Notes under the pieces: model-generated
The model's database searches: none
The model's input: the letters and a program-made list of their open reading frames with translations, nothing else
What the model was told of the DNA's origin: nothing
Position numbers and translations under genes: made by a program
Origin: Betaproteobacteria bacterium
GTDB lineage: Bacteria; Pseudomonadota; Gammaproteobacteria; Burkholderiales; SG8-41
NCBI GenBank assembly: GCA_029863175.1
Contig: JAOTVX010000001.1
Coordinates: 109,515-173,514 of the forward strand
Length of the DNA: 64,000 nt
Reading direction: 5' to 3'
Shown: positions 3,080 to 59,512 of the stretch, one piece after another
Position numbering within the stretch: the stretch's first letter is position 1
Layout of the letters: every line of letters starts with the position of its first letter

Positions 3080-3085
3080 TATAAT
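3080..3085 (+). promoter_or_regulatory. Candidate -10 box ahead of tkt
   Basis: A perfect TATAAT lies 40 bases before the tkt start and downstream of the ntrYX terminator. No convincing -35 box is seen at the usual distance, so this rests on the -10 alone. Confidence 0.35.
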
Positions 3086-3125
3086 TGGTGCACTTCCGCT
3101 TTGCCCCCCGCAAGGACTAGACAGG

Positions 3126-5126: not shown

Positions 5127-5148
5127 GCTTGGCAATCAACGGGAATAA

Positions 5149-7343
<2,195 letters not shown>

Positions 7344-7350
7344 CGGCGCC

Positions 7351-7463
7351 GTTCAATGTTCCGGATTCCGAGTTCAAGGTTCTGGGCTTGACGTTCCACG
7401 CGACCCGCCAAGCCATTAGACTACAAACCCGGAACTTGGAACGTTGAACCCGGAACTCGGAAC
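7351..7463 (+). repeat. Inverted short-period repeat (GGAAC type) between pgk and pyk
   Basis: The gap is built from a left arm of repeated GTTC-type heptamers (7351-7383) and a right arm of their complement (7431-7463, GGAACTTGGAACGTTGAACC and onward), with a unique 47-base centre. It fills nearly the whole gap. It is one of several low-period families in this window, and no gene is present in it. Confidence 0.6.
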
Positions 7464-7469
7464 AGGCTG

Positions 7470-8897: not shown

Positions 8898-9021
8898 TGG
8901 CTGTAAATGGTGAAGCGTGAATGGTGAATGATGAGTCGAAAGGGGTAAAATAAAGGGCTCAGGGTTTGTAGCGTTCTTCACCAGTCACAAGCTACCCGTC
9001 ACGCAATTCCGAGGAGTTCAT

Positions 9022-10056: not shown

Positions 10057-10071
10057 GCTGGCGGTTTTGTT
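10049..10071 (+). terminator. Intrinsic terminator over the fba stop codon
   Basis: Stem CCGCC/GGCGG with loop TAGGCT is followed by TTTTGTT. The fba TAG stop lies in the loop. It marks the end of the conserved block and the beginning of the accessory region. Confidence 0.6.
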
Positions 10072-10128
10072 GCAGGCTCCCCGCCGCGCGACGATGTGCC
10101 GATGCGCCGGCAGGACCACTCGGCTCGC

Positions 10129-11229
10129 ATGAAGCGCGGCAAGTCACCCGAGCGCCCGCCGGTATCCGTGATTACCGGCTATCTGGGCAGCGGCAAGACG
10201 ACGCTGCTCAATCGGCTGCTGCGCCATCCGGCACTCGCGAACACCGCGGTCATCATCAACGAGTTTGGCGAGATCGCGCTCGACCATCTACTGGTCGCGG
10301 CGCCGAGCGAGAACATGGTGCTGCTCGCGAACGGTTGCATCTGCTGCGCCGTGCGGGGCGACCTCGTCGGCACGCTGGGCGACCTTGCCGACAAGCGCGC
10401 ACGCGGCGAAACACCCCCCTTTGATCGTGTCTTGATCGAAACCACCGGCTTGGCCGACCCGGTCCCGGTTCTGCAGACCCTCATAACCGATCCGGAAGTC
10501 GGCCCGCGCTACCGCCTCGACGGGGTCCTGACGCTCGTGGATGGTGTGCATGGCGCCGCGCAGCTCGACGCCCACCGCGAAGCCGTCAAGCAGGCCGCGC
10601 TGGCCGACCGGCTGCTGATCACCAAATGCGACGTTGCGCCAGATGAATCGATCGCGGCGCTCGAGCGCAGGCTGGGCGCGCTCAATCCGGCCGCGCAGCG
10701 TTACCGCATAACACGCGGGGAAATATCCCCGGAGGAACTGTTCGGCGTCGCGCTCGAAGATCGTGGCGCCAAAGGACTTGCGCGTTGGCTGCGGCAGGAG
10801 GCCTATGTTGCGACTGGTGCGCGTCGCGGTGGCTACATCGGGGCTGACCGGCACGACAACGGCATCGATGCTTTCAGCGTGCATCTCGACCAGCCGGTCA
10901 CGCGCGCGGGGCTTGTCACGTGGCTTCATCTGCTCGCCTCGCTCCGAGGTGCCAACTTGCTGCGCATGAAAGGCCTCCTCAATGTCGAGGGCCGCCCCGT
11001 GACGGTGCACGCGGTGCAGACGCTGATCGACGAGCCGGTTCCGCTGGAGCGGTGGCCGGATGAGGACCGCCGGTCGCGGCTGGTCTTCATCACGCGCGAC
11101 ATGGCGCGCGCTGACATCGAGCGGACCCTGGACGCGCTGGGTTTTGATGCGGGCGCCGCGCAGCAATCGGGGGCTTTCGATCCGCGCGCCTACGAGCGCT
11201 TCGTCGCAGTGGCGGGAAATTTCCGGTGA
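10129..11229 (+). CDS. CobW/COG0523-family GTPase, putative metal chaperone
   Basis: G3E-family P-loop GTPase, a family that delivers metals (zinc, cobalt or nickel) to target proteins. It has Walker A GYLGSGKTTLL near the N-terminus, the metal-binding GCICC motif, the switch ETTGLADP, and a guanine-specificity TKCD. A CobW C-terminal domain follows. In-frame starts exist at 10096 (GTG) and 10102 (ATG); the ATG at 10129 is chosen because the family normally starts within about 15-20 residues of the P loop. There is no clear ribosome site for any of them. The metal is unknown. The neighbouring amidohydrolase downstream is a metalloenzyme and could be a client, which is inference. Confidence 0.85.
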   Translation: MKRGKSPERPPVSVITGYLGSGKTTLLNRLLRHPALANTAVIINEFGEIALDHLLVAAPSENMVLLANGCICCAVRGDLVGTLGDLADKRARGETPPFDRVLIETTGLADPVPVLQTLITDPEVGPRYRLDGVLTLVDGVHGAAQLDAHREAVKQAALADRLLITKCDVAPDESIAALERRLGALNPAAQRYRITRGEISPEELFGVALEDRGAKGLARWLRQEAYVATGARRGGYIGADRHDNGIDAFSVHLDQPVTRAGLVTWLHLLASLRGANLLRMKGLLNVEGRPVTVHAVQTLIDEPVPLERWPDEDRRSRLVFITRDMARADIERTLDALGFDAGAAQQSGAFDPRAYERFVAVAGNFR

Positions 11230-11265
11230 ACCAGGGCAGTAAGTGATGAGGGAGGTATACGGGAA

Positions 11266-12612
11266 ATGGAGATGAAGTTTCCGGAGGAGAAGGGCCCGCA
11301 GCAGTTCGTCAAGGGCGGAACGTTGATCGACGGCTCGGGCAAGAAGCCGATCAAGGATCCCGTCATCGAGTTGAACGGACGTCGCATCAAGCGCGTCGGC
11401 ACCAAGGCGAGCATCAGGATCCCGCCGCGCGCCACCGTGATCGATTGCGGCAACAACACGCTCATGCCGGGGATGATGGATCTGCACATCCACACGGCCA
11501 TGTACAACTGCATGACTTTCCACAACCACCGGGTCGCGCAGTTCGAGATCATGCCGCACTTGCAGCAGATGTACTCGTTGTTCCACGCGCAGAACTGCTT
11601 CGACATGGGTTTCACGACCCTGCGCGATCTCGGCATGAACGGACCCTACGGCCTGCTCGTCAACGAGCTGTGCGCGGTGCGCGACGCCATCAATGCCGGC
11701 ATCGTGGAAGGCCCGCGCATGCTGGTCGCCGGCTTCACGACCATGACCGGATCGCACCTGGATCTCATCCAGCCGCGGGCGATGCATCGCTGGGGCTTCA
11801 ACACGGCTGATGGGCCTTGGGAGCTCAGAAAGCTCGCGCGGAAGAACATGCTCGCCGGCTGTGACGTCATCAAGACGTGCGCGTCCGGAGGCGGAGGCAC
11901 GGACAAGGAAGAGCCCGACATCCGCAATCTCACGCAGGAAGAGCTCGATGCGCTCGTCGACGAAGCGCACGCCCTGCACAAGCACGCGGCGGTGCACTGC
12001 TTCACCACCCAGGCGCAACGCATGGCGATAAAGGCCGGCACCGACACGATCGAGCACATGGTTTTTCACGACGACAAGACCATCGACCTGATTGCCGAGG
12101 TGGGCGTGCCCGTTACGCCCACCCTGTCGCATCGCACGGATCACGCGATCCAACTGCGGCGCGAGCAGGGCACTGCGGAGTTCGTGCTGCGCAAGATGAA
12201 GTATCTGCAGCCCTTCTGCTTCCAGACCTTCCAGAAGATGTACAAGGCTGGCGTCAAGATCGCCATGGGAACCGACATGGGCTTCGAGCCCCACATGGGG
12301 ACGAACGGCGCGGAGCTGGAAATCTATGTCAAGCTCGGGATGAAGCCGATGGACGCGATTCTGACCGCGACTCGCAACGCGGCGCAGGCGCTGAAGATGG
12401 ACAAGGATCTCGGCACGATTGTGGCCGGGAAGCTCGCCGACATCATCGCCATCAACGGCGATCCGCTAAAGAACATCCGTTGCATTCAGGACAAGAAAAA
12501 CATCCAGCTGGTGATGAAGGAAGGCAAGATCTACGCCGATCGCCGCCCGGGAAAGAACAAGAATGTCGTCAACGTAAAGCCGGGGGAGTGGAAGATCGTT
12601 GATTATCTGTAA
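11266..12612 (+). CDS. Metal-dependent amidohydrolase (imidazolonepropionase/prolidase-like)
   Basis: TIM-barrel amidohydrolase of 448 residues, without a signal peptide. It has the N-terminal beta-sandwich start (FVKGGTLIDGSGKKP), metal ligands in MPGMMDLHIHTAM, a second His in AAVHCFTTQAQRMA, a third in DTIEHMVFHDD, and the late Asp in MGTDMGFEPHMG. The C-terminal AGKLADIIAINGDPLKN is typical of the superfamily. GAGGGAGG lies about 12 bases upstream of the start. It acts on an amide or cyclic C-N bond, but the substrate is not identifiable. A perfect 13-bp hairpin overlaps its stop codon. Confidence 0.85.
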   Translation: MEMKFPEEKGPQQFVKGGTLIDGSGKKPIKDPVIELNGRRIKRVGTKASIRIPPRATVIDCGNNTLMPGMMDLHIHTAMYNCMTFHNHRVAQFEIMPHLQQMYSLFHAQNCFDMGFTTLRDLGMNGPYGLLVNELCAVRDAINAGIVEGPRMLVAGFTTMTGSHLDLIQPRAMHRWGFNTADGPWELRKLARKNMLAGCDVIKTCASGGGGTDKEEPDIRNLTQEELDALVDEAHALHKHAAVHCFTTQAQRMAIKAGTDTIEHMVFHDDKTIDLIAEVGVPVTPTLSHRTDHAIQLRREQGTAEFVLRKMKYLQPFCFQTFQKMYKAGVKIAMGTDMGFEPHMGTNGAELEIYVKLGMKPMDAILTATRNAAQALKMDKDLGTIVAGKLADIIAINGDPLKNIRCIQDKKNIQLVMKEGKIYADRRPGKNKNVVNVKPGEWKIVDYL

Positions 12613-23164: not shown

Positions 23165-24700
23165 ATGGCATTTGAATCGTTATTGGCAGAGTACGAAGCG
23201 CGGCGCGCAAAGGCGCTCGCGGGCGGCGGCGCTGAGAAGTACGCCAAACGCAAGGCGGCTGGCGTCTGGAACGCGCGTGAGCGGATCGACTATCTCGTCG
23301 ACCAAGGAACATTCATCGAGTCGGGCTTGTTCGGCTCCTCGGGCGTTTATCCGGAGCAGGAAAACGAAACCCAGACCGATGGCAAGCTCGCGGGCTACGC
23401 GAAGATCAGCGGGCGCGACGCGTGCGTGGTGGTGAACGACTTCACGGTGAAGGGCGCTTCCACCAGCTCGACCAACAGCAAGAAGATCGCACAGATGAAG
23501 CGCACTGCGACCGAGCGCGGCATGCCGTTGGTTGTCATCGGAGAGTCCACCGGTGCGCGGCTGCCCGACGCCATGGGCTCGCGCGGCATGGGTCAGCTGC
23601 TTGGAAATGACATCACGCAATTCCGGCGCCTGCGCGAGACGCCGATGGCAGCCGCGGCGTTCGGGCCCTCGTTTGGCTCGTCGACCTGGCTCATGTGTCA
23701 GGCCGATTTCGCGGTGATGAAAAAAGGCGCGACGATGGCCGTGTCGAGCCCGGGGCTCGTGTCGATGGCCCTTAACGAAAAAGTGGACGCGGAGGAGCTC
23801 GGCGGTTGGCGGCTGCATGCCGAGACCACCGGCCTCATTGACCAGGCGGCGGATACCGAGGAAGAAGTTTTCGACGCGATAAAGAAGTTTCTCTCGTACC
23901 TGCCCAGCCATCACATGGAAGCGCCACCCGATGCGGCGGTGCTGGCCGGTTCGGGTGCCGATATGGAGAAGGTCTTCTCTGTGCTGCCGGAGAGTCGCAC
24001 GCAGGTGTACGACATGAAGCGCATCATCCGGGCGATCGCCGACAAGGATACCGTCTTCGAGTTGAAACCGCGCTTTGGCAAGAGTGCGGTGACGGCGCTC
24101 GCGCGCCTCGGCGGGAAAAGCGTGGGTATCGTCGCCAACAACCCGTTACATCGGGGCGGGGCGCTCGACGGCGATGCCTGCCGCAAGATCGTGGATTTCC
24201 TCGTGCTGTGCGACTCGTACAACGTGCCCCTCATGATCCTGGCCGACACGCCGGGCTTCCAGATCGGAACCGAAGCCGAGAAGGCGGGGGCGCCGGGTAA
24301 GATCATGAACTTCATGAACGCGATGACACTGGTCACGGTGCCGCGCGTATCCGTCATCATTCGCAAAAGCTATGGCCGCGCCTACGTCTGCATGGGAGGT
24401 GGCCGGCACTCCGATGAGATCGCAGCGTGGCCCACGGCCGAAGTGAGCTTCATGAGCCCCGAGTTCGCGACCAAGATCGTCCACGGCGTGGGAGCGGGCG
24501 AGCCGGGGTTCGAAGAGGCGCTGGCCAAGATCCGGAAGGGCGCCGATGTCTGGGGGCTTGCCGCCGTTTACGCTGCGCAGGCGGTGATCCGGCCCGAACA
24601 GACGCGCGATTACCTGATTCGCATGCTCGATGTGCACCGGTTGCGGATCACGAAAGGCGTCGGGCAGCACTTGATGCGCGCCTGGCCCACTTCTTACTAA
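23165..24700 (+). CDS. Acyl-CoA carboxylase carboxyltransferase subunit (second copy)
   Basis: 511-residue AccD/PccB-family carboxyltransferase. The start MAFESLLAEYEARRA is preferred over a 13-codon extension derived from a repeat. It has GESTGARLPDAMGSRG, NDFTVKGASTSSTNSKK, NNPLHRGGALDGDACRK, LADTPGFQIG and VCMGGGRHSDE. It is clearly paralogous to the gene at 13212 but not a recent duplicate. It is followed by biotin carboxylase, so this is the more likely partner of that subunit. A 7-bp inverted repeat overlaps the stop. Confidence 0.9.
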   Translation: MAFESLLAEYEARRAKALAGGGAEKYAKRKAAGVWNARERIDYLVDQGTFIESGLFGSSGVYPEQENETQTDGKLAGYAKISGRDACVVVNDFTVKGASTSSTNSKKIAQMKRTATERGMPLVVIGESTGARLPDAMGSRGMGQLLGNDITQFRRLRETPMAAAAFGPSFGSSTWLMCQADFAVMKKGATMAVSSPGLVSMALNEKVDAEELGGWRLHAETTGLIDQAADTEEEVFDAIKKFLSYLPSHHMEAPPDAAVLAGSGADMEKVFSVLPESRTQVYDMKRIIRAIADKDTVFELKPRFGKSAVTALARLGGKSVGIVANNPLHRGGALDGDACRKIVDFLVLCDSYNVPLMILADTPGFQIGTEAEKAGAPGKIMNFMNAMTLVTVPRVSVIIRKSYGRAYVCMGGGRHSDEIAAWPTAEVSFMSPEFATKIVHGVGAGEPGFEEALAKIRKGADVWGLAAVYAAQAVIRPEQTRDYLIRMLDVHRLRITKGVGQHLMRAWPTSY

Positions 24701-24710
24701 TCGAGAAGTG
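24688..24710. repeat. 7-bp inverted repeat over the carboxyltransferase stop
   Basis: CACTTCT and AGAAGTG flank a 9-base loop containing the TAA stop (24698-24700). There is no T run. Confidence 0.45.
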
Positions 24711-24803
24711 ATGATAGAGGGTGATGAGAAATGGTGATGAAAAATGGTGATGAGAAAGCCGCACCGCCGACTTAACGGTTGGCCATCACCAGTACTCGTC
24801 ACT
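24708..24803. repeat. GGTGATGA 13-base repeat block 1
   Basis: Tandem 13-base units (TGGTGATGAAAAA, TGGTGATGAGAAA) are followed by a unique centre and a short inverted array (CCATCACCAGTACTCGTCAC). It lies between a carboxyltransferase and biotin carboxylase on the same strand. Confidence 0.8.
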
Positions 24804-24855
24804 CTTGGCGGTCGGCGGGCGCGAGCCGCAATCCTCAACACGTATATGCGTATCC

Positions 24856-26437: not shown

Positions 26438-27148
26438 ATGGACTCGCGGGACCTGATCGTTGAAGCACGCAAGCGGGGGCGGGCGACGCTCGATGAGCAA
26501 GCCGGGAAGTGGCTGCTCGCCGCCTACGGCGTCGCCGTTCCTGCGTCGGTGATCGTGCCGGGCGCTGCGGGGGCCGCTGCAGCGTTCGAGTGCCTCAAGC
26601 CGCCGGTGGTGGTCAAGGTCATGTCTCCCGACATCCTGCACAAGAGCGAAGCGCGCGCGGTACGGCTCAACGTGGCATCCGCTGTGGAACTGGCGGCGGC
26701 ATGCGAGGAGATTCTTGCGAACGCGCGCGCTTACAAAAACAATGCCCGAATCGACGGGTTCCTGGTGGAGGAGATGGCGCCGGCTGGCCAGGAGATGGTG
26801 ATCGGCGGCCTGCGCGATCCGCAGTTCGGCCCCCTCGTCATGGTGGGGCTGGGCGGAATTTTCGTCGAGGTGCTGGCGGATGTCGCTTTCCGCATCTGCC
26901 CGATTGAGCGGCGCGACGCCGAGGAAATGCTGGACGAGTTGAAGGGCGCGGCAATTCTCAAAGGCGCGCGCGGCAGAAAGCCGGTCTCGCGCGAGGCGAT
27001 CGTCGAGACGTTGCTCCGGATCGGTGGCGAGCGGGGGCTTCTCATGGATCACGCGGCCGACATCAAGGAGGCGGACATCAACCCCCTCATCGTTTCCGAA
27101 CGCGGGGCGGTCGCGGTGGACGCCCGCTTCGTGCTTTCGAAAGAGTGA
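26438..27148 (+). CDS. NDP-forming acyl-CoA synthetase, ATP-grasp (beta) subunit
   Basis: Beta-type subunit of an acetate-CoA-ligase (ADP-forming)-like enzyme, 236 residues. ATP-grasp landmarks are KWLLAAYGVAVPASVIVPG, PVVVKVMSPDILHKSEARAV, GFLVEEMAPAGQEMVIGGLR, GPLVMVGLGGIFVEVLADVA, and the C-terminal IKEADINPLIVSERGAVAVD. The alpha subunit follows after a repeat block; in many bacteria the two are fused. It is likely to activate an organic acid with CoA at the cost of ATP. Confidence 0.88.
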   Translation: MDSRDLIVEARKRGRATLDEQAGKWLLAAYGVAVPASVIVPGAAGAAAAFECLKPPVVVKVMSPDILHKSEARAVRLNVASAVELAAACEEILANARAYKNNARIDGFLVEEMAPAGQEMVIGGLRDPQFGPLVMVGLGGIFVEVLADVAFRICPIERRDAEEMLDELKGAAILKGARGRKPVSREAIVETLLRIGGERGLLMDHAADIKEADINPLIVSERGAVAVDARFVLSKE

Positions 27149-27282
27149 TGAGTACTGGTGATGAGAGATGGTGATGGGAGATGGTGATGAGAAGCTTTCT
27201 CCAACCTGCACCGATGCGAGCGGTTTTCCATCACCAGTTTCCATCACCATTAATCATCACCATTAATCATCACCATCTCGGA
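27146..27282. repeat. GGTGATGA 13-base repeat block 2
   Basis: A left array (TGGTGATGAGAGA, TGGTGATGGGAGA, TGGTGATGAGAAG), a unique 41-base centre, and a right array of CATCACCATTAAT-type units running almost into the next start codon. It separates the two acyl-CoA synthetase subunits. Confidence 0.85.
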
Positions 27283-27287
27283 TTTCA

Positions 27288-28733
27288 ATGAGCGAGAGCA
27301 TCCTCCAGGAATTCGGACCGTTATTCGCACCGAAGACGGTGGCAGTCGTCGGCGCCTCAACGAAGGGAACGGCGCTGCCCAATGTGTTCATTCGCCGTAT
27401 ACGGGAATTCGGTTATACCGGTGAGATCTATCCGATTCACCCCTCGGCCGCCGAGATCGACGGATTTAAGGCCTACAAGAGCCTCGGCGAGACGCCGCGG
27501 CCGATAGACTACGCCTACATCGCCATCGGGGCGGCGCAGGTCGCGCCGTTGCTCGCGGTTGGCAAGGGGCGGGTGCGCTTCGCACAGGTGATCTCGAGTG
27601 GTTTCGGGGAAGTCGACGAGGGCAAGACGCTGGAGGAAGAACTGGCGGCGGCGGCTCGCGCCGGCGGCATGCGGCTCATCGGCCCCAACTGTCTTGGCAT
27701 CTACACGCCTCGCGGCCACGTAACTTTTACCGAGATCGGTCCCAAGGAATTGGGGTCCATTGGCATCATCTCGCAGAGTGGCGGCCTCGGCACCGACATC
27801 ATTCGCCGCGGCTATGCGCGCGGCTTGAAGTACTCCGGGTTGATTACCGTTGGCAACTGCGCCGACGTCGAGCCGCACGAATTGCTTCAGTTTTATCTGG
27901 CCGATGCCGAGACCCGGGTCGTCGGCATGTACATCGAAACCGCAAAGGACGGCCGGCGGCTGTTCGAGATTCTTCGCGAGGCGCGAGCGAAGAAGCCTGT
28001 CGTGATCCTCAAAGGCGGCCGCACGCAACAAGGCTTGCTTGCCGCCGCCTCGCACACCGGATCGCTTGCCGGCGACGATCGGGTGTGGGTGGCGTTGTCG
28101 CGGCAGACGGGCTGCGTGCTGGTGAACACCCTCGACGAATTCATCGACGCGCTGCTCATCTTCCAGGCCCTTGCGCCGCACGCGCAGCGCCCGATGCGTC
28201 GCGTCGTGCTGTTCGGCAATGGCGGCGGCACTAGCGTTCTGGCGACGGACTACTATGCACGCCTCGGTCTCGACGTGCTGCCATTCGACCGTGCCGCGAT
28301 CGCCGCGTTGGCCGACCTGAAATTGCCTCCGGGAACGAGCATCACGAATCCCGTGGATTGCCCGGTGGGCACGCTGCAGCAGGAGGACGGCCGGGTCGCG
28401 GAGAAGATTCTCGATATCATCTACGAAAAGGGCGACCCGGACGTGCTCGTGATGCATCTCAATCTCTCAGCTTTCGTCGGTCGAACCAAGGACGAGGTGC
28501 TCGACAACCTCATGCAGGTGGTGCTCCGGGTGCAGTCGCGGCACCCGGGCCGGGCGCATTTCGTGCTGGTGCTGCGTTCCGACGGCGACCCGCCGCTCGA
28601 AGAGCGCAAGCGCGCATTCCGCAGCACGGCCACTGCGCTGGGTATTCCGGTCTACGACGAGATGGCAAATGCCGGCGTGGCGCTCGCGGCATTGGCGGCG
28701 CACGAGCGCTTTATTCATGCTCGAAATGCGTGA
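27288..28733 (+). CDS. NDP-forming acyl-CoA synthetase, CoA-binding (alpha) subunit
   Basis: 481 residues. The N-terminal CoA-binding Rossmann domain has LFAPKTVAVVGASTKGTALP. Ligase-CoA domains follow with MRLIGPNCLGIYTPRG, GSIGIISQSGGLGTDIIRRG and VVILKGGRTQQGLLAAASHT, where the His of SHTGSLAGDD is the expected phospho-acceptor. The ATG follows a repeat block directly, without a clear Shine-Dalgarno. It works with the ATP-grasp subunit at 26438. Confidence 0.88.
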   Translation: MSESILQEFGPLFAPKTVAVVGASTKGTALPNVFIRRIREFGYTGEIYPIHPSAAEIDGFKAYKSLGETPRPIDYAYIAIGAAQVAPLLAVGKGRVRFAQVISSGFGEVDEGKTLEEELAAAARAGGMRLIGPNCLGIYTPRGHVTFTEIGPKELGSIGIISQSGGLGTDIIRRGYARGLKYSGLITVGNCADVEPHELLQFYLADAETRVVGMYIETAKDGRRLFEILREARAKKPVVILKGGRTQQGLLAAASHTGSLAGDDRVWVALSRQTGCVLVNTLDEFIDALLIFQALAPHAQRPMRRVVLFGNGGGTSVLATDYYARLGLDVLPFDRAAIAALADLKLPPGTSITNPVDCPVGTLQQEDGRVAEKILDIIYEKGDPDVLVMHLNLSAFVGRTKDEVLDNLMQVVLRVQSRHPGRAHFVLVLRSDGDPPLEERKRAFRSTATALGIPVYDEMANAGVALAALAAHERFIHARNA

Positions 28734-30762: not shown

Positions 30763-31089
30763 GTGGACACGCTGCAAGTCGGGATGAGGCACACCGTGGA
30801 GTGGGAAGTCACGGAAAAACTTTGTACGAGCCGAGGCGAATACAAAGTTTTCTCCACGCCGTCGATGACGCAGTTCGTCGAGATGGCGTCCCAGAGCCTC
30901 GCCGCGCCGCATCTCAAGCCCGGCCAGGGGCAGGTCGGCATCTCGGTCAACATCCGGCATCTCGCGCCCACTCCGATCGGCAAGAACGTGCGGGCCGACG
31001 TGGAGCTGATCGGCATCGACCGGCGCAGGCTCGCCTTCAAGGTCAAGGTGTTCGACGACGTCGAACAGGTGGGCGAAGCCGAGCACTAG
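30763..31089 (+). CDS. FlK-like hot-dog thioesterase, 3' end cut off by an inserted element
   Basis: Single hot-dog domain resembling fluoroacetyl-CoA thioesterase FlK. It has TLQVGMRHTVEWEV, the nucleophile-region Thr and Glu in STPSMTQFVEMAS, and the catalytic His in SVNIRHLAPTPIG. It ends abruptly at VGEAEH with a TAG at the border of a MITE-like element. The expected continuation, RFVIDMDKYLERLRKKLEPK, is readable in one frame on the far side (31293-31358). About 22 residues are therefore lost; the core may still fold. The GTG start follows GAGGAGA; the ATG at 30724 is an alternative. Confidence 0.75.
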   Translation: MDTLQVGMRHTVEWEVTEKLCTSRGEYKVFSTPSMTQFVEMASQSLAAPHLKPGQGQVGISVNIRHLAPTPIGKNVRADVELIGIDRRRLAFKVKVFDDVEQVGEAEH

Positions 31090-31290
31090 CAGCCTGTCGG
31101 ACTCGACGGTCCACAGGCTGCTTAGGGCAAAACCGCCTGAGGATTTGGCATGAATCTGAACCAAATGACCTCCTCTTGCCCCGCTCCGTTGGAGTCGGAT
31201 CGAATTCATGTTCCTCTAAGTCTTTCTTGTCGTTGTAATGCCGGCGGTTTTGCCTCAGGAGTTTGTCAGACCAAAGTCCGACAAACTCCT
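31088..31290. mobile_element. MITE-like element inserted in the thioesterase gene
   Basis: About 200 bp with no gene. The ends are imperfect inverted repeats, AGCAGCCTGTCGGACT on the left and AGGAGTTTGTCGGACT read inward from the right, sharing TGTCGGACT. Each end folds locally: left CAGCCTGT/ACAGGCTG (31090-31120), right AGGAGTTTGTC/GACAAACTCCT (31257-31290). An inner inverted repeat GGCAAAACCGCC/GGCGGTTTTGCC (31126-31137, 31243-31254) links the halves. No clear target duplication is visible, so exact borders are uncertain by a few bases. Confidence 0.65.
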
Positions 31291-31292
31291 CG

Positions 31293-31358
31293 CGGTTCGT
31301 GATCGATATGGACAAGTACCTCGAGCGGTTAAGGAAGAAACTCGAACCGAAGAGATAG
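31293..31358 (+). pseudogene. Displaced 3' end of the thioesterase gene
   Basis: An open stretch reading RFVIDMDKYLERLRKKLEPK then Arg and a TAG stop. It has no start codon of its own and continues the hot-dog family C-terminus missing from the gene at 30763. The rest of the gap to the attC site (31359-31426) holds one CAAGACG-type repeat unit. Confidence 0.65.
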
Positions 31359-31426
31359 AGAGAGAAACAAGAAGTCTAATTGAACCGCCAAGACGCGAAG
31401 CACGCCAGGAATTCAAGAATTAAATG

Positions 31427-31501
31427 GCTTAACGCCCCCGATGAGGGGCTGCGGGGACCGCGCAGCGCGTCACGCAGTTCCTCTCGATCGGCATGTTAGG
31501 C
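31427..31501 (-). other. Integron-type attC recombination site 1
   Basis: Read on the minus strand, the 75-base site has R'' GCCTAAC, L'' CCGATCGAGAGG, a 28-base centre, L' CCCCTCATCGG, and R' GTTAAGC. The outer boxes fit RYYYAAC and GTTRRRY. L'' carries one extra unpaired base relative to L', the mark that sets attC orientation. It lies just downstream of the minus-strand cassette gene, as expected. Confidence 0.75.
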
Positions 31502-31528
31502 GGCGCTAAGGCCGTTATTCCAGCGGCC

Positions 31529-31921
31529 TCAAGACGTAGCGGTCGAGCGAACCGAAGCCTTACTGGTACGCCAACTCCAGATGGCTGACGCAATTAAAGC
31601 CAGAAGTCCAAGGGTCTCGACGATCTTGTTGAAGAAGATGTACATGCTCCCGACGATAACAACCGCGCCGAGAACCGACAGAATCATTGGCCCAAGAACG
31701 TGATGTTTTCTATATCCCAGAAAAACGAAACCCAGCGTGAGCACCGCAAACAGGCTGACCACCGCTGCTTGAATGTGCGGGTTAATGGCGATGGTGATGC
31801 CAAAAACTGAAAGAACAGCGACGACTATAAACAGGCCATTACATGCAATGAACGCCAGAATAGCCGCGGCACCCGGCAGCCAACCCAGTTTTCCCGAGCC
31901 CTTTTGCGTGTCAGCGGCCAT
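31529..31921 (-). CDS. Integron-cassette membrane protein (MerC-like pattern, hedged)
   Basis: 130 residues with four hydrophobic segments (AAAILAFIACNGLFIVVAVL; IQAAVVSLFAVLTLGFVFLG; PMILSVLGAVVIVGSMYIFF; VETLGLLALIASAIWSW). The loop YRKHHVLGP and overall spacing recall MerC-domain proteins, but no paired cysteines are seen, so mercury transport is not supported. AGAGGTGA precedes the ATG. Base composition is visibly less GC-rich than its neighbours. It lies exactly between two attC sites in the same orientation, so it is best read as a mobile gene cassette. Confidence 0.7.
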   Translation of the reverse strand: MAADTQKGSGKLGWLPGAAAILAFIACNGLFIVVAVLSVFGITIAINPHIQAAVVSLFAVLTLGFVFLGYRKHHVLGPMILSVLGAVVIVGSMYIFFNKIVETLGLLALIASAIWSWRTSKASVRSTATS

Positions 31922-31959
31922 AGCTCACCTCTTTCACATTGCGAACTGTTTTGTCAAAA

Positions 31960-32019
31960 GCCTAACGTCATGTTGAGCGGCGCGCGCTTGTCGCGCGGCC
32001 GCTCGAACTAAAGTCAGCC
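31960..32019 (-). other. Integron-type attC recombination site 2
   Basis: On the minus strand: a weak R'' GGCTGAC, 5-base spacer, L'' TTCGAGCGG, a GC-rich centre, L' CCGCTCAA, and a perfect R' GTTAGGC. L'' again has one extra base (the C in TTCGAG). It has the same orientation as site 1. The stop codon of the upstream oxygenase gene falls inside it, and the last dozen codons of that gene are attC sequence. Confidence 0.7.
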
Positions 32020-33008
32020 GTGCTGTCAGCGAATTTGAGCGTCGCCCCACGCGCGAGAAGTCTCTGGGCCTGTGTCACCATGGCGTCTAGGATGCTCGCC
32101 GCACTCGGGCGGTCGTGGATGAGGCCGACGCATTCGCCGGCCCCCACCGCGACCATATCGAAATCTTGTCGCGACCTCGCTTCCGCGTAAGCTGCGGCGA
32201 CTGATCCGAACGCCGCGGTTGCGTCCGCTTCACGGTGCGCCCACTGCTCCGTCAGCTTGTTCTTGAGAACCCGGTACGAGAACTCTGCGGGCCACGAAAC
32301 GCCCCGCAGAGCGTCAATCGCCTTCGTACGCACCGTGTCGTCGCCAGTGGCGCGTGCCGCCCTGTCCGATGCGGCCACCGGGATAAGAGCTTCCTCGGAA
32401 GACAGGAATCTTGTGCCGACAACGACACCGTCAGCGCCCAGCATCAACGCCGCGGCAAGCCCTCGACCGTCCGCAATTCCCCCCGCTGCGAGGAGCAGTG
32501 TGGTTGGCGCTCTCCTGGCCAGATAGTCGGCCACCTCCGGCACGAACGGCAGGGTCGAGCGAAGGGCACCATGACCTCCGGCCTCTGCCCCCTGGGCAAC
32601 GATCGCGGCGGCGCCAGCCTCAATCGCTTGGTCCACATGTCGCAGCGATTGCACCTGGCAGATCAGCTTGGCGCTGCTCCGCAGGATCCGTTCAGCGAAC
32701 GGCCTCGGGTCACCGAAAGAGAGAAATACGCAATAGGGGGAATGGCTAAGCACCTCATCGAGCACGTGGGGAGCGCGTGCCAGCGCCCAGGTGATAAAGC
32801 CGACACCGAACTTCTGCCCCTGGACATGTGAGAGTTCCTGCGTGAGATCAGGTTCGCCGCCAAGGATACCGGCGTAACCTCCACCGACGATTCCGAGCCC
32901 ACCAGCACCAGACACAGCCGCCGCCAATCGGCCCCCGGTAATGAGTGCCATGGGGGCGCAAATGATTGGGTGCTGGATTCCGAAAGCATCAGTCAATCGC
33001 GTTCGCAT
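31968..33008 (-). CDS. Nitronate monooxygenase-family flavoprotein
   Basis: FMN-binding TIM-barrel of 346 residues (nitronate monooxygenase / enoyl reductase FabK-like family). It starts GIQHPIICAPMALITGG, with GAGGLGIVGGGYAG, then IVAQGAEAGGHGA (the region holding the catalytic His), LLAAGGIADGRGLAAALMLG and VVGTRFLSSEEALIPVAASD. The natural C-terminus is probably near TLKFADSTADF; the final SSSGRATSARRST comes from reading into attC site 2. It oxidises nitronates or a related substrate. Confidence 0.85.
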   Translation of the reverse strand: MRTRLTDAFGIQHPIICAPMALITGGRLAAAVSGAGGLGIVGGGYAGILGGEPDLTQELSHVQGQKFGVGFITWALARAPHVLDEVLSHSPYCVFLSFGDPRPFAERILRSSAKLICQVQSLRHVDQAIEAGAAAIVAQGAEAGGHGALRSTLPFVPEVADYLARRAPTTLLLAAGGIADGRGLAAALMLGADGVVVGTRFLSSEEALIPVAASDRAARATGDDTVRTKAIDALRGVSWPAEFSYRVLKNKLTEQWAHREADATAAFGSVAAAYAEARSRQDFDMVAVGAGECVGLIHDRPSAASILDAMVTQAQRLLARGATLKFADSTADFSSSGRATSARRST

Positions 33009-33029
33009 GTCGATTTCCTACATTAACTT

Positions 33030-33232
33030 CCGTGAATCGTGAGTCGTAAATCGACGATATCTTGGCGCGCTTGGCGTCTTGGCGGTTCAGTTCTGGTTCT
33101 TATCGGCGTGTATCGGCGTCCATCGGCGGCGAAAAAAACCGTAAATCGTGAATCGAATCTTTGTTCCTCCTCTGTGTTCTCTGTGCTCTCTGTGGCCAAT
33201 TGCTTTTGACTTTATCCGCGTTCATCTGCGGC
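33030..33232. repeat. Mosaic block of several short-period repeats
   Basis: In order: GTGAATC heptamers, CTTGGCG units ending in GGCGGTTCAG, TATCGGCGT units, GTGAATCG again, CTCTGTG units (CTGTGTTCTCTGTGCTCTC), and TTATCCGCGTTCATCTGCGG. The same order recurs downstream of the second hydrolase. No gene is present. Confidence 0.8.
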
Positions 33233-34114
33233 TCATTTCCGCTTTGCCATGGTGGACGGATTAAGCGACCGGGGATCGCGCGGCCGCCAACGCCCCGAGT
33301 CCACGAGGGACAGGAATTCATCCGTGATGCCGTGGAAGAGATCCGGCTCCTCGACGTTGACCGCGTGGCCAGTCGCGGGCACGACCGTCAGGCGTGCCGC
33401 GGGGCAGACGCGCTTGATGAAGATCGCGGGATCCAGGCAGTTGTTGTCCTCGTCACCCGTGATGATGTGGGTCGGCACCTTCATCCGCCGCAGTGACCGC
33501 TCCAGGCTGTAGAGCGTCGGGCGGCGCGCCTGGACACCGCGCAGGGTGTTCGCCGAGCCGAGCGCCGAGTGCGTGGCGAACATCATGCAGAATTCGCGGA
33601 AACTCCGCGGGTCCTTGTTCTGCAGCTGCACCCGGGCCGGCCCGATCTGGTAGACCTTGATGGCTTGTGGCGTGCCAAGCTCGTCGAAGCGACGCGCCAT
33701 CACCTCGGTGTCGCGCTGGAATTGGTGGCGTTTGTCCGGGTCTGATCCATAGCCGACGCCAATCGACGTGACTGAGCGCGCCATGTGGGGGTAGCGCAGC
33801 CCGAAGTGGAGCGCCGCAAAACCCCCCATCGAGCAGCCGATGACGTGCGCCTTGCGGATCTTCAGATGCCGCAGCACGTTGGCGATATCGTCGGTCGCGA
33901 TCGCCTGTGAGTATTGGGAACCCGCCTTCGGCACTTCCGAGGGCGGATAGCCGCGCGCGTTGAACACGATGCAGCGATAACGGCGGCTAAAGTAGCGGAT
34001 CTGCGGCTCCCAGCCGCGCATATCGTGGGCGAACTCGTGCACAAAGATGAGGGGTGTGCCGCGGCCCGCTTCTTCGTAGTAAAGCCTCACCCCGTTGGAA
34101 TCAGCAAAAGGCAT
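33233..34114 (-). CDS. Alpha/beta hydrolase (first of a tandem pair)
   Basis: Alpha/beta-hydrolase of 293 residues. The oxyanion region is PLIFVHEFAHDMRGWEPQI, the nucleophile elbow GCSMGGFAA (Ser), acid TGDEDNN, and catalytic His ATGHAVNVEEP. The MPFADSNG start matches its neighbour and is preferred to the adjacent GTG. It is closely similar along its length to the gene at 34322, including the last 14 residues. It probably hydrolyses an ester or C-C bond of a small substrate (MhpC/BphD-like superfamily); the substrate is unknown. Confidence 0.85.
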   Translation of the reverse strand: MPFADSNGVRLYYEEAGRGTPLIFVHEFAHDMRGWEPQIRYFSRRYRCIVFNARGYPPSEVPKAGSQYSQAIATDDIANVLRHLKIRKAHVIGCSMGGFAALHFGLRYPHMARSVTSIGVGYGSDPDKRHQFQRDTEVMARRFDELGTPQAIKVYQIGPARVQLQNKDPRSFREFCMMFATHSALGSANTLRGVQARRPTLYSLERSLRRMKVPTHIITGDEDNNCLDPAIFIKRVCPAARLTVVPATGHAVNVEEPDLFHGITDEFLSLVDSGRWRPRDPRSLNPSTMAKRK

Positions 34115-34130
34115 CACTTACTCCGTTATA

Positions 34131-34321
34131 GATGTGTGAGTCGTGAATCGTAAAAGGTGAATCGTGTTTCTCTCTTTTTGGCGCGCATGGCGCGCATGGC
34201 GCCGTGGCGGTTCAGTCCGGAAACTTATCGGCGTTCATCGGCGGCGAATCAGATCTGTTCGGGGTTCGAAGTTCTGGGTTCTCTATTTCTTTGTATGTAT
34301 TGATCCGCGTTTATCTGCGGC
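34131..34321. repeat. Mosaic short-period repeat block between the hydrolases
   Basis: GTGAATCG units, TGGCGCGCATGGCGCGCATG then GGCGGTTCAG, TATCGGCGTTCATCGGCGG, a GTTCGAAGTTCTGGGTTC stretch, and TGATCCGCGTTTATCTGCGG. Same families and nearly the same order as 33030-33232, so the flank was duplicated with the gene or re-formed independently. Confidence 0.8.
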
Positions 34322-35203
34322 TCAATTCCGCTTTGCCATGGTGGACGGATTAAGCGAACGCGGATCGCGCGGCCGCCAGCGCCCCGAGTCCACGAGCGCG
34401 AGGAACTCGTCGGTGATGCGGTTGAAGAAATCCGGCTCCTCGGCATTCACCACGTGACCGCTGGCAGAGACCACGGTGAGGCGCGCAGCAGGACACATGC
34501 GCTTGACAAAGAGGCCGGGGGCGAGCGCGCCTTCGTCTTCGTCGCCGACCACGATGTGAGTCGGTACGTTCATGCGGCGCAGCCCGGCCTCGAGCTGATA
34601 GATGCTGGGCCGCCGTGCCTGCAGCCCGCGCAGCGTATTGGCGTGGCCGGCAGCCGAGCCCTGCGCAAACTTCGTCCAGAAATCACGGTAGCCGCGCGGG
34701 TCCTTGTTCTGCATCTGCACCCGGTTGGGCGCGAGCTGGTAGACCTTCTTCGCCGCCAGAATGCCGCGCTCTTCGAACAACCGCGCCATCGCTTCGTTGT
34801 TGCGCAGAAACTCCTTGCGCTTCGCGGGGTCGGAACCCGACCCGGCGCCGACCGCGGTGAGCGAGAGCGCCATTTTCGGATAGCGTATGCCGAAATGCAG
34901 CGTTGCCGCCGCGCCCATGGAGCAGCCGATGATGTGGGCCTTGCGCACGCCCAGGTGTCGCATCACGTTGGCGATGTCGCCGGTTGCGATGTTCTGGGAA
35001 TAGCCGGCGGGCGTCCGCGGCACGTTTGAGGGCGGGTAGCCGCGCGCGTTGTAGGCGATGCAGCGGTAGCGCCGGCTGAAGTGCCGCAGTTGCGGCTCCC
35101 AGCTGCGCATGTCGCCGGAAAATTCGTGCACGAACACGATCGGCGTGCCGCGTCCCGCTTCTTCGTAGTAAAGCTTTACGCCATTGGAATCAGCATAGGG
35201 CAT
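34322..35203 (-). CDS. Alpha/beta hydrolase (second of a tandem pair)
   Basis: 293-residue paralogue of the gene at 33233. Motifs are IVFVHEFSGDMRSWEPQL, nucleophile GCSMGAAAT, acid VGDEDEG, and His ASGHVVNAEEP. The shared tail is SGRWRPRDPRSLNPSTMAKR. The two differ mainly in the cap region (residues about 130-200), which usually sets substrate choice, so they may act on related but different compounds. Confidence 0.85.
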   Translation of the reverse strand: MPYADSNGVKLYYEEAGRGTPIVFVHEFSGDMRSWEPQLRHFSRRYRCIAYNARGYPPSNVPRTPAGYSQNIATGDIANVMRHLGVRKAHIIGCSMGAAATLHFGIRYPKMALSLTAVGAGSGSDPAKRKEFLRNNEAMARLFEERGILAAKKVYQLAPNRVQMQNKDPRGYRDFWTKFAQGSAAGHANTLRGLQARRPSIYQLEAGLRRMNVPTHIVVGDEDEGALAPGLFVKRMCPAARLTVVSASGHVVNAEEPDFFNRITDEFLALVDSGRWRPRDPRSLNPSTMAKRN

Positions 35204-42388: not shown

Positions 42389-42545
42389 TGAGTAATGGTT
42401 ATGAAATACTGGTGATGAAATACTGGTGATGACAACTGGTGATGTACACGAATTTCCTTGTTACTTTTCTTTATCACCACCTCTCATCACCATTTCTCGT
42501 CACCCTCTTTCATCACTTCGTCACCCGTCACCCGTCACGCGTCAT
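42389..42545. repeat. GGTGATGA 13-base repeat block 3
   Basis: A left array (TGGTGATGAAATA, TGGTGATGACAAC), a unique AT-rich centre, then an inverted array (ATCACCACCTCTC, ATCACCATTTCTC) passing into GTCACCC heptamers. It lies between the convergent dapE and lyase genes. Confidence 0.8.
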
Positions 42546-48951: not shown

Positions 48952-48987
48952 GGCACAACTCCTCAAAGGTCGGGATTGCTCAAGACG

Positions 48988-49107
48988 TGATGACGACTGG
49001 TGATGATTACTGGTGATGGAAAATGGTGATGAAAAGCTCGAAAAGCGCCGATGACCTTTTGCCCATCACCACTTCTCATCACCAGTTCCCATCACCATTT
49101 TCCATCA
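48988..49107. repeat. GGTGATGA 13-base repeat block 4
   Basis: A left array (TGGTGATGATTAC, TGGTGATGGAAAA, TGGTGATGAAAAG), a 32-base unique centre, then CATCACCACTTCT, CATCACCAGTTCC, CATCACCATTTTC. The right end covers the stop codon of the next acyl-CoA dehydrogenase gene (49105-49107). Confidence 0.85.
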
Positions 49108-50268
49108 CTTCTTCTCAGCCCCGGGAGGCCGCTGGGAAAAGGACCGCTCGAAAACGGATTCGGCAATGCGGTTCTTGAGGATCTCGATCGAGCCGCCCGC
49201 GATCATCCAGCCACGGCATTTGCGGAAGCACCACTCGACCAGCGTCTCCTCGGTATAGCCCATCCCGCCCATTACCTGCATCGCCTCGGAGGCGATCTCG
49301 AAGCCGGCCTGGTTGCAGAACGCCTTGGCGATGGAGGTTTCCTCGGCCGAGGGAAAGCCACGATCCGCGTTCGAGGCGGCGCGATAGATCAGGAGCTGGC
49401 CCGCGTCGAGCTTGATCTTCATGTCCGCGAATTTCCACTGCAGCCCCTGGAACTCTGCCAGAAGGCGTCCGAACTGCTTGCGTTGCAGGGCCCACTGCCG
49501 CGCCGTTTCGTAGCAGTAGCGTCCCAGCGCAAGCGAGCGCGCCGTATTGCCGATGCGCTCCACATTGAAGCCCGCGATCTGCTTCTTGAACCCGCCCTGC
49601 CTGAGCACGACGTTCTCCGGCGGGACGTAGACGTTGTCGAACCAGGTCGTTACCCACTCTTCGCCGTTCATGAAGCGCGAAGGCTTGCTTTGCTTCACGC
49701 CGGGCGCGCTGCGCTCGATCAATACCGAGCCGATCCCATCCACGCCGGGGCCGTAGCGCACGTAGGCCAGTATCACGTCCGCGTACTGCGCGTGGGTCGT
49801 GAAGATTTTCTCCCCGGTGACGCGGTAGCCCTCGCCCTCGGGCGTCGCGGTAGTCGTGAGGTCGGTTACAGCCGAGCCCGCATCCGACTCGGTCATGGCG
49901 ACGCAGATGACGGCCTCGCCCGAGAGCAAGCGCGAGAGATAGCGTTTCTTCTGGTCCTCCGTCCCGTACTCGGCGAGCACGCGGATTGCCCCGAAATTGC
50001 CCGCCTGGATCACATCAGCGCTGCGTGGGCACACCTGCGCGATGGTCTCGATCGCGATCACCGCGTCCATCAGCGTTCCGCCCTGGCCGCCATCCTTCTC
50101 GGCGATCGTGATCCCGAGGAGCCCCTGCTGCGCCATGAGCTTTGCCACGTCCCATGGATGATGCTGGTTGTGCGCGCGAGCGAGGGCGCCGGCGCGCAGA
50201 TGGCGCTCGGCGAAGCCCCTCACTGCCTCTTGGAACTGTTTCTGCTCCTCCGTCAGCTCAAAGTTCAT
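49105..50268 (-). CDS. Acyl-CoA dehydrogenase (third copy)
   Basis: 387-residue acyl-CoA dehydrogenase of the main type. It has VICVAMTESDAGSAVTDLTT, VTGEKIFTTHAQYADVIL, FDNVYVPPENVVLRQGGF, a catalytic-domain segment QGLQWKFADMKIKLDAGQLL, and QVMGGMGYTEETLVEWCFR. The C-terminus ends inside a repeat block. It is flanked by the two MmgE/PrpD genes, all in one direction. Electrons would go to ETF. Confidence 0.9.
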   Translation of the reverse strand: MNFELTEEQKQFQEAVRGFAERHLRAGALARAHNQHHPWDVAKLMAQQGLLGITIAEKDGGQGGTLMDAVIAIETIAQVCPRSADVIQAGNFGAIRVLAEYGTEDQKKRYLSRLLSGEAVICVAMTESDAGSAVTDLTTTATPEGEGYRVTGEKIFTTHAQYADVILAYVRYGPGVDGIGSVLIERSAPGVKQSKPSRFMNGEEWVTTWFDNVYVPPENVVLRQGGFKKQIAGFNVERIGNTARSLALGRYCYETARQWALQRKQFGRLLAEFQGLQWKFADMKIKLDAGQLLIYRAASNADRGFPSAEETSIAKAFCNQAGFEIASEAMQVMGGMGYTEETLVEWCFRKCRGWMIAGGSIEILKNRIAESVFERSFSQRPPGAEKK

Positions 50269-50289
50269 CGCTTACTCGTGCTCTTGAAG

Positions 50290-50395
50290 AAGTGATGGGA
50301 GATGGTGATGAGAACTGGTGATGAAAAATGGTGATGAAAAACCAAACCACAGTTTGCAACGGTTTGCTCATCACCAGTATTCATCACCATTTACC
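50290..50395. repeat. GGTGATGA 13-base repeat block 5
   Basis: A left array (ATGGTGATGAGAAC, TGGTGATGAAAAA twice), a 30-base unique centre, and inverted CATCACCAGTATTCATCACC. It lies between acyl-CoA dehydrogenase and MmgE genes. Confidence 0.85.
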
Positions 50396-50398
50396 CGC

Positions 50399-50426
50399 CC
50401 CTTGCGAGTCAGGCGCGGAGCAAGGG
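50399..50426. repeat. 7-bp inverted repeat over the second MmgE stop
   Basis: CCCTTGC and GCAAGGG flank a 14-base loop that contains the stop codon (50409-50411). Confidence 0.4.
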
Positions 50427-52836: not shown

Positions 52837-53730
52837 ATGACGACAAATTCTTCCACTCTATTTGAGTCGAGCCTAAAGAGCCTGAAGTTCCTGCACCGCG
52901 GCAAGGTTCGCGATCTGTATGCCGTGGGCGAGGACAAGCTGATGGTGATCCAGACGGACCGCCTCTCGGCGTTCGACGTGATCCTGCCCGACCCGATCCC
53001 GGAAAAGGGGCGTGTGCTGACAGAGATGTCGTTCTTCTGGTTTCGGAAACTCGCGCACATCGTGCCCAATCACCTGACCGATGTGAATCCGGAGACGGTG
53101 GTCGCCGCCGCGGAACGCGAGCAGGTGGAAGGGCGCTCGATGGTAGTGAAGAAACTCCAGCCGCTCAAGATCGAAGCCGTGGTGCGCGGCTACATCATCG
53201 GCTCGGGGTGGAGCGACTATCAGCGCACGGGCGCCGTCTGCGGCATCCCGCTGCCCAAGGGACTGAAGCAGGCGCAGAAGCTGCCGCAGCCGATCTTTAC
53301 GCCGGCAACCAAGGCGCCGATCGGCAGCCACGATGAGAACATTTCCTTTGAGCAGGCGGTCGACATCGTCGGTGACCGGGCGCTCGCGGAACGGGTGCGC
53401 GACGTCTCGATCCGGATCTACGCCGAGGCCGCCGAATACGCAGCGACGCGCGGCATCATCATCGCCGATACCAAGTTTGAATTTGGGGTTGATGATAAGG
53501 GCGGGCTGGTGCTCATAGATGAAGTGCTGACGCCGGATTCGTCACGATTCTGGCCGGTCGCGGAGTACCGTACGGGAACCAGCCCGCCCTCATTCGACAA
53601 GCAGTTCGTGCGCGACTGGCTTGAGACGCAACCCTGGAACAAGAAGGCGCCGGCGCCCAGGCTGCCCGCGGATGTCCTTAAGAAGACCACTGAGAAATAC
53701 AAGGAGGCCCTACGCCTTCTTACGCAGTAG
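52837..53730 (+). CDS. purC: SAICAR synthetase
   Basis: Phosphoribosylaminoimidazole-succinocarboxamide synthase, 297 residues, the longer yeast-like form usual in Betaproteobacteria. It has [80 protein letters not shown] and [20 protein letters not shown]. No strong Shine-Dalgarno, as the upstream gap is repeat DNA. It works in the same pathway as purE. Confidence 0.95.
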
Positions 53731-53733
53731 ACG

Positions 53734-53820
53734 GGTGATGAGAAATAGTGATGAATAATGGTGATGAGAAATGGTGATAGGTTGTCGCTGCTTTAGTTAT
53801 CACCAGTAATCATCACTTCC
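53734..53820. repeat. GGTGATGA 13-base repeat block 6
   Basis: GTGATGAGAAATA, GTGATGAATAATG and GTGATGAGAAATG units, a 21-base centre, and inverted ATCACCAGTAATCATCACTT. It ends 8 bases before the next start codon. Confidence 0.85.
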
Positions 53821-59353: not shown

Positions 59354-59408
59354 GGTTCTTCTCCGGGTTGGCTGCGTTATTATAGGCTCGATATCTGGAG
59401 GACAAGAA

Positions 59409-59505
59409 GTGATGAATGATGGTGATGAACCGCCCGGAATGACCCAACGATTTACCCATCACCAGTAATCATCACCAGTATCCATCACCAATAATCATCA
59501 CCTCT
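59409..59505. repeat. GGTGATGA 13-base repeat block 7
   Basis: A short left arm (GTGATGAATGATGGTGATGA), a 30-base unique centre, then three or four CATCACCAGTAAT-type units. It fills the gap between divergent genes and ends 8 bases before the dehydrogenase start. Confidence 0.85.
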
Positions 59506-59512
59506 TTATGTG

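What the first reader, a model, noticed from the sequence alone, without database searches (positions are those of the whole stretch)
31427..32019. Integron gene cassette between two attC sites with no integrase in view
Two sites 75 and 60 bases long, in the same orientation, flank a single minus-strand gene. Each has outer boxes near RYYYAAC and GTTRRRY, an inner L''/L' pair, and one extra unpaired base in L''. The gene between them is visibly less GC-rich than its surroundings and encodes a four-helix membrane protein of uncertain family. The upstream oxygenase gene reads into site 2, its stop codon lying in it. This is a cluster of attC sites lacking an integrase, embedded in a catabolic region.
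Basis: partly seen in the sequence, partly recalled or inferred. Interest (0 to 1): 0.75.

Follow-up and report, generated by a model that had tools for sequence, protein, structure and literature searches.

The report
Two integron gene cassettes without integrase
Two genes in this bacterium are integron gene cassettes sitting in the chromosome without the enzyme that moves them nearby, at a spot where some related species carry other such cassettes.

Summary
The two sites are real attC sites. A covariance model trained on 18 attC sites near integron integrases in relatives gives exactly two window hits up to E=10: 31960-32019 (E 3.5e-5) and 31427-31501 (E 2.8e-4), both minus strand. There are two cassettes, not one. 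Cassette A is the 130-aa MerC-like membrane gene plus site 1. Cassette B is the nitronate monooxygenase (NMO) gene plus site 2, whose R'' box is read in frame as the NMO C-terminus. An 84%-identical NMO in another genome has its own attC in the same position. No intI was found in the window or 59 fetched loci. So this is a small CALIN.

In relatives the same locus, between an FlK-type thioesterase gene (broken by an insert here) and an alpha/beta-hydrolase gene, is short and attC-free in some (G001, G404, G428, G438, G234, G422). It carries other attC cassettes in five (G443, G451, G446, G437, G457), strong sites always in the same orientation. intI lies elsewhere in 38 of 74 family genomes. 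Preferred landing site or decaying ancestral array is open. CALINs at conserved loci are published for Xanthomonas. Verdict: genuine, a new member of a known kind.

The parts
31427..31501 (-). attC site 1, attC of the MerC-like cassette: R'' GCCTAAC, R' GTTAAGC, L''/L' with one extrahelical base in L''
   Evidence: R1 26.6 bits, E 2.8e-4; own scanner 13
31960..32019 (-). attC site 2, attC of the NMO cassette: R'' GGCTGAC, R' GTTAGGC, long hairpin with one extrahelical base in L''
   Evidence: R1 30.4 bits, E 3.5e-5; own scanner 13.5; fold
31529..31921 (-). MerC-like 130-aa membrane protein gene (cassette A gene)
   Evidence: Pfam PF03203 35.1 bits against cut-off 27.6; 83 proteins found including the window's own, 63 of 83 with a longest contig under 3 kb; four predicted helices, low confidence
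31433..31965 (-). Cassette A by the G^TT rule: short leader, MerC-like gene, attC 1 (533 bp)
   Evidence: inferred from the R' positions of the two sites; sequence
31968..33008 (-). Nitronate monooxygenase-family gene, 346 aa (cassette B gene); its last codons lie inside attC 2
   Evidence: PF03060 121.8 bits; attC-encoded tail and L182 comparison
31966..33026 (-). Cassette B by the G^TT rule: would start at the TT of G^TTAATG (G at 33027), giving an 18-nt leader before the ATG at 33008
   Evidence: the only GTTRR motif on the minus strand between the NMO start and 33120; boundary inferred
30772..31358 (+). Left neighbour: FlK-type thioesterase gene, broken by a roughly 200-bp MITE-like insert at about 31088-31290; the rest of its frame ends near 31358
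   Evidence: PF22636 95.1 bits for the first part; inverted repeats; a similar insert recurs in L038
33233..34117 (-). Right neighbour: alpha/beta hydrolase gene, convergent with the thioesterase
   Evidence: PF00561 80.8 bits; synteny in relatives
31369..31410 (+). Left arm of an inverted repeat (GAACCGCCAAGACGC type) between the thioesterase and site 1
   Evidence: 42 nt, 81% complementary to 33060-33101
33060..33101 (-). Right arm of the same inverted repeat, just outside the inferred start of cassette B
   Evidence: the same repeat lies on the hydrolase side in L037

Best explanation
A two-cassette CALIN. Two integron cassettes (NMO gene + attC 2; MerC-like gene + attC 1) lie head to tail on the minus strand, inserted between two convergent chromosomal genes. 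By the known cassette mechanism (established knowledge), each attC folds as a single strand and an integron integrase joins it to a target, cutting G^TT in the R' box. With no integrase beside them, insertion and any later excision need an IntI acting in trans, such as the integrons found elsewhere in 38 of 74 family genomes. Shown: attC structures, two cassettes, no intI found in the window, genes foreign to the family, attC-free and differently filled versions of the locus in relatives. Inferred: IntI in trans as the agent, exact insertion ends, present activity. The locus was filled more than once, or kept turning over, since no cassette gene is shared between the six species compared.
For: R1 finds only these two sites in 64 kb and also finds 20 attC sites in an array not used for training, L188 of G443. 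In the training alignment 81.5% of cells of the named structure pair (shuffles 73.0%) and the covariation score is 0.285 (shuffles 0.143), 0 of 500 shuffles as high for each. No intI by tblastn in the window or 59 loci, positive controls found. NMO tail is attC-encoded; the 84% homologue in L182 has an attC at the same place, R1 E 1.7e-6. NMO absent at E up to 1e-100 in 74 of 74 family genomes. attC 3' of the thioesterase in five relatives, strong hits always on the strand opposite to it. No attC and short gaps there in six relatives. intI over cut-off in 38 of 74 family genomes; 50 fetched intI stretches, covering 39 intI places, have no thioesterase or hydrolase neighbour. Nineteen cassette genes of six species show no blastp match to one another at E up to 0.01.
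Against: The window's own genome is not held, so its intI could not be sought. Site 2's R'' is off consensus. The number of pairs changed on both sides in the training alignment does not exceed shuffles (7 against 6.9). Nine of the 18 training sites come from two carrier genomes (G437, G457), though from other contigs. Cassette B's upstream end rests on one GTTAATG motif. A close MerC-like gene without attC exists (L001/L003; no R1 hit), and ten more distant MerC-like loci also lack attC, so that gene is not always a cassette. Recombination itself was not tested.
Confidence: 0.88

Rival explanations
1. Remnant of an ancestral integron that once sat between the thioesterase and the hydrolase genes: intI and attI were lost, cassettes were inherited, replaced and decayed lineage by lineage. 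(This is a rival about origin; the thing would still be a CALIN.)
For: Decay in one clade: G350 (L050) keeps 102 bp of a cassette gene present at this place in its near relative G457 (L159). Four of the six carriers lie in one 8-row clade of the FeADH tree. [quoted passage not shown]
Against: No intI trace at E up to 1 in the window or 59 loci. None of 50 intI stretches (39 places) has these neighbours. No cassette gene is shared between species (19 genes). The carriers need five gains or losses, four forced by well-supported branches, and are not clustered (139 of 500 shuffles as low).
Confidence: 0.4
2. Chance palindromes that imitate attC; NMO and the MerC-like gene are ordinary chromosomal genes.
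For: The genome is rich in intergenic palindromes, and site 2's R'' is degenerate. MerC-like relatives without attC exist.
Against: R1 E-values 3.5e-5 and 2.8e-4 with no third hit to E=10; same strand, right spacing, a gene between; NMO homologue with attC at the same place; attC arrays at the same locus in relatives.
Confidence: 0.02
3. The block was moved by the flanking GAACCGCCAAGACGC inverted repeats (a transposon-like or recombination-borne unit), the attC sites being passengers.
For: Arms 31369-31410 and 33060-33101 bracket both cassettes. The attC-less MerC-like gene of L001 also lies between such arms; these are the only two converging pairs under 4 kb in the 915 kb searched.
Against: The repeat occurs elsewhere (21 arms in 7 of 80 sequences, nine of them in the window), and three other carrier loci (L052, L039, L159) have none. 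No search for a transposase was made beyond the genes named here.
Confidence: 0.08

Closest known systems
[quoted passage not shown]
   Same: two attC sites in tandem, no integrase found nearby, chromosomal setting
Conserved CALIN positions in Xanthomonas (lamG/secF etc., PMC12444791, passages)
   Same: CALINs away from the intI locus recur at the same chromosomal positions across species
   Different: other host genes and another bacterial group; cassette genes differ between all six species compared; no common home of intI was looked for beyond these neighbours
attG insertions (Loot et al. 2024; seen only as a reference in PMC11023631 and as discussed in a passage of PMC12444791)
   Same: cassettes placed outside attI and attC by IntI
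   Different: experimental attG insertions in E. coli were described as broadly spread over loci; here one locus recurs
MerC mercury resistance protein (Pfam PF03203)
   Same: profile match over the cut-off, about 130 aa, four predicted helices
   Different: one near-invariant Cys (C27, motif ACNG) in 36 aligned sequences; MerC's Cys pair is recalled, not taken from a call

Membership tests
attC site | outer R''/R' boxes (RYYYAAC ... GTTRRRY; consensus recalled) | tested here: met
   R' perfect in both sites; R'' perfect in site 1, GGCTGAC (2 departures) in site 2
attC site | L''/L' helix with an unpaired extra base in L'', giving orientation | tested here: met
   helix scores 9 and 8 with one bulge in L'' on the minus strand; R1 alignments
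attC site | accepted by a covariance model of attC | tested here: met
   own model R1, not IntegronFinder's: E 3.5e-5 and 2.8e-4
attC site | recombined by IntI via the bottom strand | not testable with these tools
   needs a recombination assay
integron gene cassette | one gene followed by its attC in the same orientation, short leader | tested here: met
   NMO then attC 2, MerC-like then attC 1, all minus strand; leader of cassette B inferred
integron gene cassette | not fixed at this place in relatives (mobility) | tested here: met
   six relatives with short attC-free gaps; five relatives with other attC cassettes
CALIN | at least two attC sites | tested here: met
   two; threshold from PMC9024848
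CALIN | no intI in the neighbourhood | tested here: met
   none found in the 64-kb window; the rest of the 173,520-bp contig listed was not seen
attG-type insertion | target-site G^TT junction shown by an empty site in a near-identical strain | tested here: inconclusive
   closest relative G443 carries other cassettes; intergenic DNA of the others is too diverged
MerC transporter | profile match over curated cut-off | tested here: met
   35.1 against 27.6 bits; no NCBIfam match at E up to 0.001
MerC transporter | metal-binding cysteine pair (recalled) | tested here: not met
   one conserved Cys only in alignment A1

The most novel reading that the evidence does not exclude
The gap 3' of the FlK-type thioesterase gene is a natural, family-wide preferred landing site for integron cassettes delivered in trans: an 'attG hotspot' used again and again, in one orientation, by integrons that sit elsewhere in the chromosome.
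Probability: 0.3. Interest if true: 0.6.

Novelty: new member of a known kind. Interest (0 to 1): 0.42.

Why it matters
It gives a concrete natural test of how cassettes leave integrons: one orthologous locus, attC-free in some species, filled by different cassettes in the same orientation in others, and decaying in one clade. It also shows a nitronate monooxygenase-family gene as an integron cassette whose protein C-terminus is written by the recombination site. Seven paper searches were made. The one that paired nitronate monooxygenase with gene cassette and integron listed a single paper, a general review of contaminant degradation, not opened; no search looked for this locus by its neighbours.

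Tried and rejected
Rfam at gathering thresholds: no hit in the window, so I built a model. Plasmid and viral collections: no MerC-like relative. PF00589 in G001: one hit, not an integron integrase over the cut-off. Solved structures: nothing below E 0.3 for the MerC-like family. AlphaFold2 model too weak for a fold search, so none was run. Idea that cassettes insert into hairpin loops of the GAACCGCC repeats: only two cases, not pursued. Idea that the locus is the old home of an integron: no intI trace, kept as a rival.

Errors of mine: (protein 7) and the thioesterase query was read in the wrong frame; it was redone. One search had no positive control and was repeated with one. The Poisson estimates counted five loci (8.95e-6 with each attC taken as independent, 4.3e-8 with an assumed mean cluster of 3); one of the five (G443, 22.3 bits) falls below the score that matches the threshold (about 24 bits, my estimate from listed E-values), so four of 52 is the fair count and those two probabilities are too small. 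One search also used stricter filters.

Full report
What was claimed and whether it is there. I then took 18 attC sites lying near integron integrases in eight other genomes, none from this locus, though nine come from two genomes (G437, G457) that carry other cassettes at it. From them I built covariance model R1. On that alignment 81.5% of cells of the structure pair and the covariation score is 0.285, against 73.0% and 0.143 in shuffles (0 of 500 as high); the number of pairs changed on both sides (7) does not exceed shuffles (6.9). R1 returns exactly two hits in the 64-kb window up to E=10, the two sites, both minus strand.

Two cassettes, not one. Read on the minus strand, the order is NMO gene, attC 2, MerC-like gene, attC 1. 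Cassette A (MerC-like) runs from the R' of site 2 to the R' of site 1, 533 bp. The NMO gene (31968-33008) ends inside site 2. Its last residues...STADFSSSGRATSARRST, are the translation of the attC. Of the 120 best NMO homologues listed, the window's own included (7,999 were scored), 21 have 'TAN' in their last 30 residues and none has it elsewhere, as expected if R'' (..GCTAAC) is read in frame. One such homologue (84% identical) could be seen in DNA: in L182 (genome G771) R1 finds an attC at 2793-2854 over the end of the gene (E 1.7e-6) and its R'' GGCTAAC is read as T-A-N. The window's site 2 has GGCTGAC there. Three more distant NMO relatives (L183-L185, 56-62% identical) have no attC hit at E up to 1. 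The likely upstream end of cassette B is G^TTAATG with its G at 33027, leaving an 18-nt leader; this is inferred.

Gene content. The MerC-like protein passes Pfam MerC (35.1 bits against 27.6) but has a single near-invariant Cys and no NCBIfam match. Of 83 proteins found, 63 have a longest contig under 3 kb. It occurs in 4 of 399 order genomes, two of them marginal, and in 9 of 369 class genomes at E up to 1e-8. The one close copy, in G001 (L001/L003), and ten distant loci show no attC, so the gene exists outside cassettes too. Function is not settled; a metal-linked membrane protein is the most natural guess, as several distant relatives sit beside ArsR-type regulators or arsenic-methyltransferase-like genes (read by eye).

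No integrase. tblastn with seven intI proteins finds nothing at E up to 1 in the window or in 59 related loci. Repeated with positive controls, it finds intI in L088 and L095 (E 1e-145 or lower) and again nothing in the window or the 59 loci. The window's own genome is not held, so intI elsewhere in it could not be sought. In the family of G001, to which the window belongs by synteny and by the FeADH tree, intI passes the curated cut-off in 38 of 74 genomes, and attC matches occur in 63 of 74 (404 matches in 310 Mb).

The locus in relatives. The cassettes sit between a FlK-type thioesterase gene and an alpha/beta hydrolase gene that converge. I fetched 58 neighbourhoods from relatives (18, 40); 52 hold the thioesterase gene, 39 of them with at least 3 kb beyond it. 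R1 finds attC 3' of the thioesterase in G451 (six at E up to 0.003, a seventh at 0.71), G446 (2), G437 (3, the third at E 0.038), G443 (1, E 0.0067) and G457 (1 at E 7e-4, plus two weak). These lie on the strand opposite to the thioesterase, as in the window, except one weak hit in L159 (2607-2695, E 2.1). Elsewhere in the fetched loci there is one hit at E 0.014, 17 kb from the thioesterase (L138), and weak hits at E 2.3-3.2 in L138, L157 and L051. In six relatives both flanking genes are present, 117-287 bp apart in their matched parts, with no attC hit: G001 (191), G404 (197), G428 (287), G438 (147), G234 (117), G422 (119). In others the gap holds unrelated genes or the contig ends. At scores comparable with the genome-wide search, 4 of 52 relatives carry attC within 5 kb 3' of the thioesterase, where 0.27 sites are expected from the genome-wide rate. 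No matched control loci were examined, apart from the rest of the fetched sequence. The cassettes differ: 19 cassette genes of the six species have no blastp match to one another at E up to 0.01. They include addiction-module pairs in G451 (below Pfam cut-offs) and G446, GFA, MOSC and glyoxalase proteins in G457, a weak glyoxalase match and unknown proteins in G437, unknowns in G443.

Gain, loss and decay. On a tree of FeADH proteins (35 rows) the six carriers need five changes, four forced by well-supported branches, and are not clustered (139 of 500 shuffles as low). G350, a near relative of G457, has no attC hit here but keeps 102 bp of one of G457's cassette genes at the same place. So cassette content at this locus turns over and decays. 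None of 50 fetched intI stretches (39 intI places) has these neighbours, so the locus is not the home of the integrons seen.

Comparison with what is known. CALINs are a defined class (at least two attC by default, proposed to be degraded integrons; PMC9024848, passages). Conserved CALIN positions away from intI were reported in Xanthomonas and contrasted with broadly spread attG insertions in E. coli (PMC12444791, passages). The attG paper itself was seen only as a reference. The present case fits the class; its extra interest is one orthologous gap in a betaproteobacterial family with attC-free, filled and decayed states and one orientation.

Conclusion. Best reading: a two-cassette CALIN placed, and possibly still movable, by an IntI in trans (0.88 for CALIN). 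Hotspot against ancestral remnant is undecided.

Noticed in passing
window 24685-24817, 27122-27288, 42421-42518, 48964-49123, 50269-50402, 53712-53818, 59404-59516, 62428-62575: Intergenic palindromes built of 13-nt tandem units (GTGATGAnnnnTG ... CATCACCAnnnnn), eight of them in 64 kb, plus other short-unit families (GTGAATC, GAGATCGG, TTATCTGCGGC); L001 and L038 show similar repeats by eye. Function unknown.
   Followed up: partly
window 31088-31290: MITE-like insert with imperfect terminal inverted repeats that breaks the FlK-type thioesterase gene beside the cassettes; a 75% identical copy lies in L038 995-1206.
   Followed up: partly
L001 3905-4463: A MerC-like gene 69% identical to the cassette gene, without attC, between converging CGCCAAGACGCCAAG repeat arms like those that bracket the window's two cassettes.
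   Followed up: partly
L188 (G443:C57) 13-12607: Array of 20 attC sites on one strand (E up to 0.003) in the window's closest relative; no intI over cut-off is listed on that contig. A cassette reservoir in that genome.
   Followed up: partly
L050 1885-1986 against L159 3201-3302: 102-bp remnant (93% identical) of a GFA cassette gene left at the locus in G350, whose near relative G457 has the whole gene.
   Followed up: yes
G451:C135, G451:C136, G459:C165, G447:C54, G132:C226, G403:C112, G455:C11: Short open frames (60-92 aa) matching only about the last 50 positions of the integron integrase model, in several family genomes; possible intI relics.
   Followed up: no
window 33233-35203: Tandem pair of alpha/beta hydrolase genes with 76% identical DNA over 300 nt around their 3' ends; also a pair in L037 (G443) and L038 (G001).
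   Followed up: no
L191, L192, L190, L197, L004: Distant MerC-like proteins (motif ACYG where shown) sit beside ArsR-type regulators, OsmC-like or arsenic-methyltransferase-like genes, hinting at a metal or metalloid role (by eye).
   Followed up: partly
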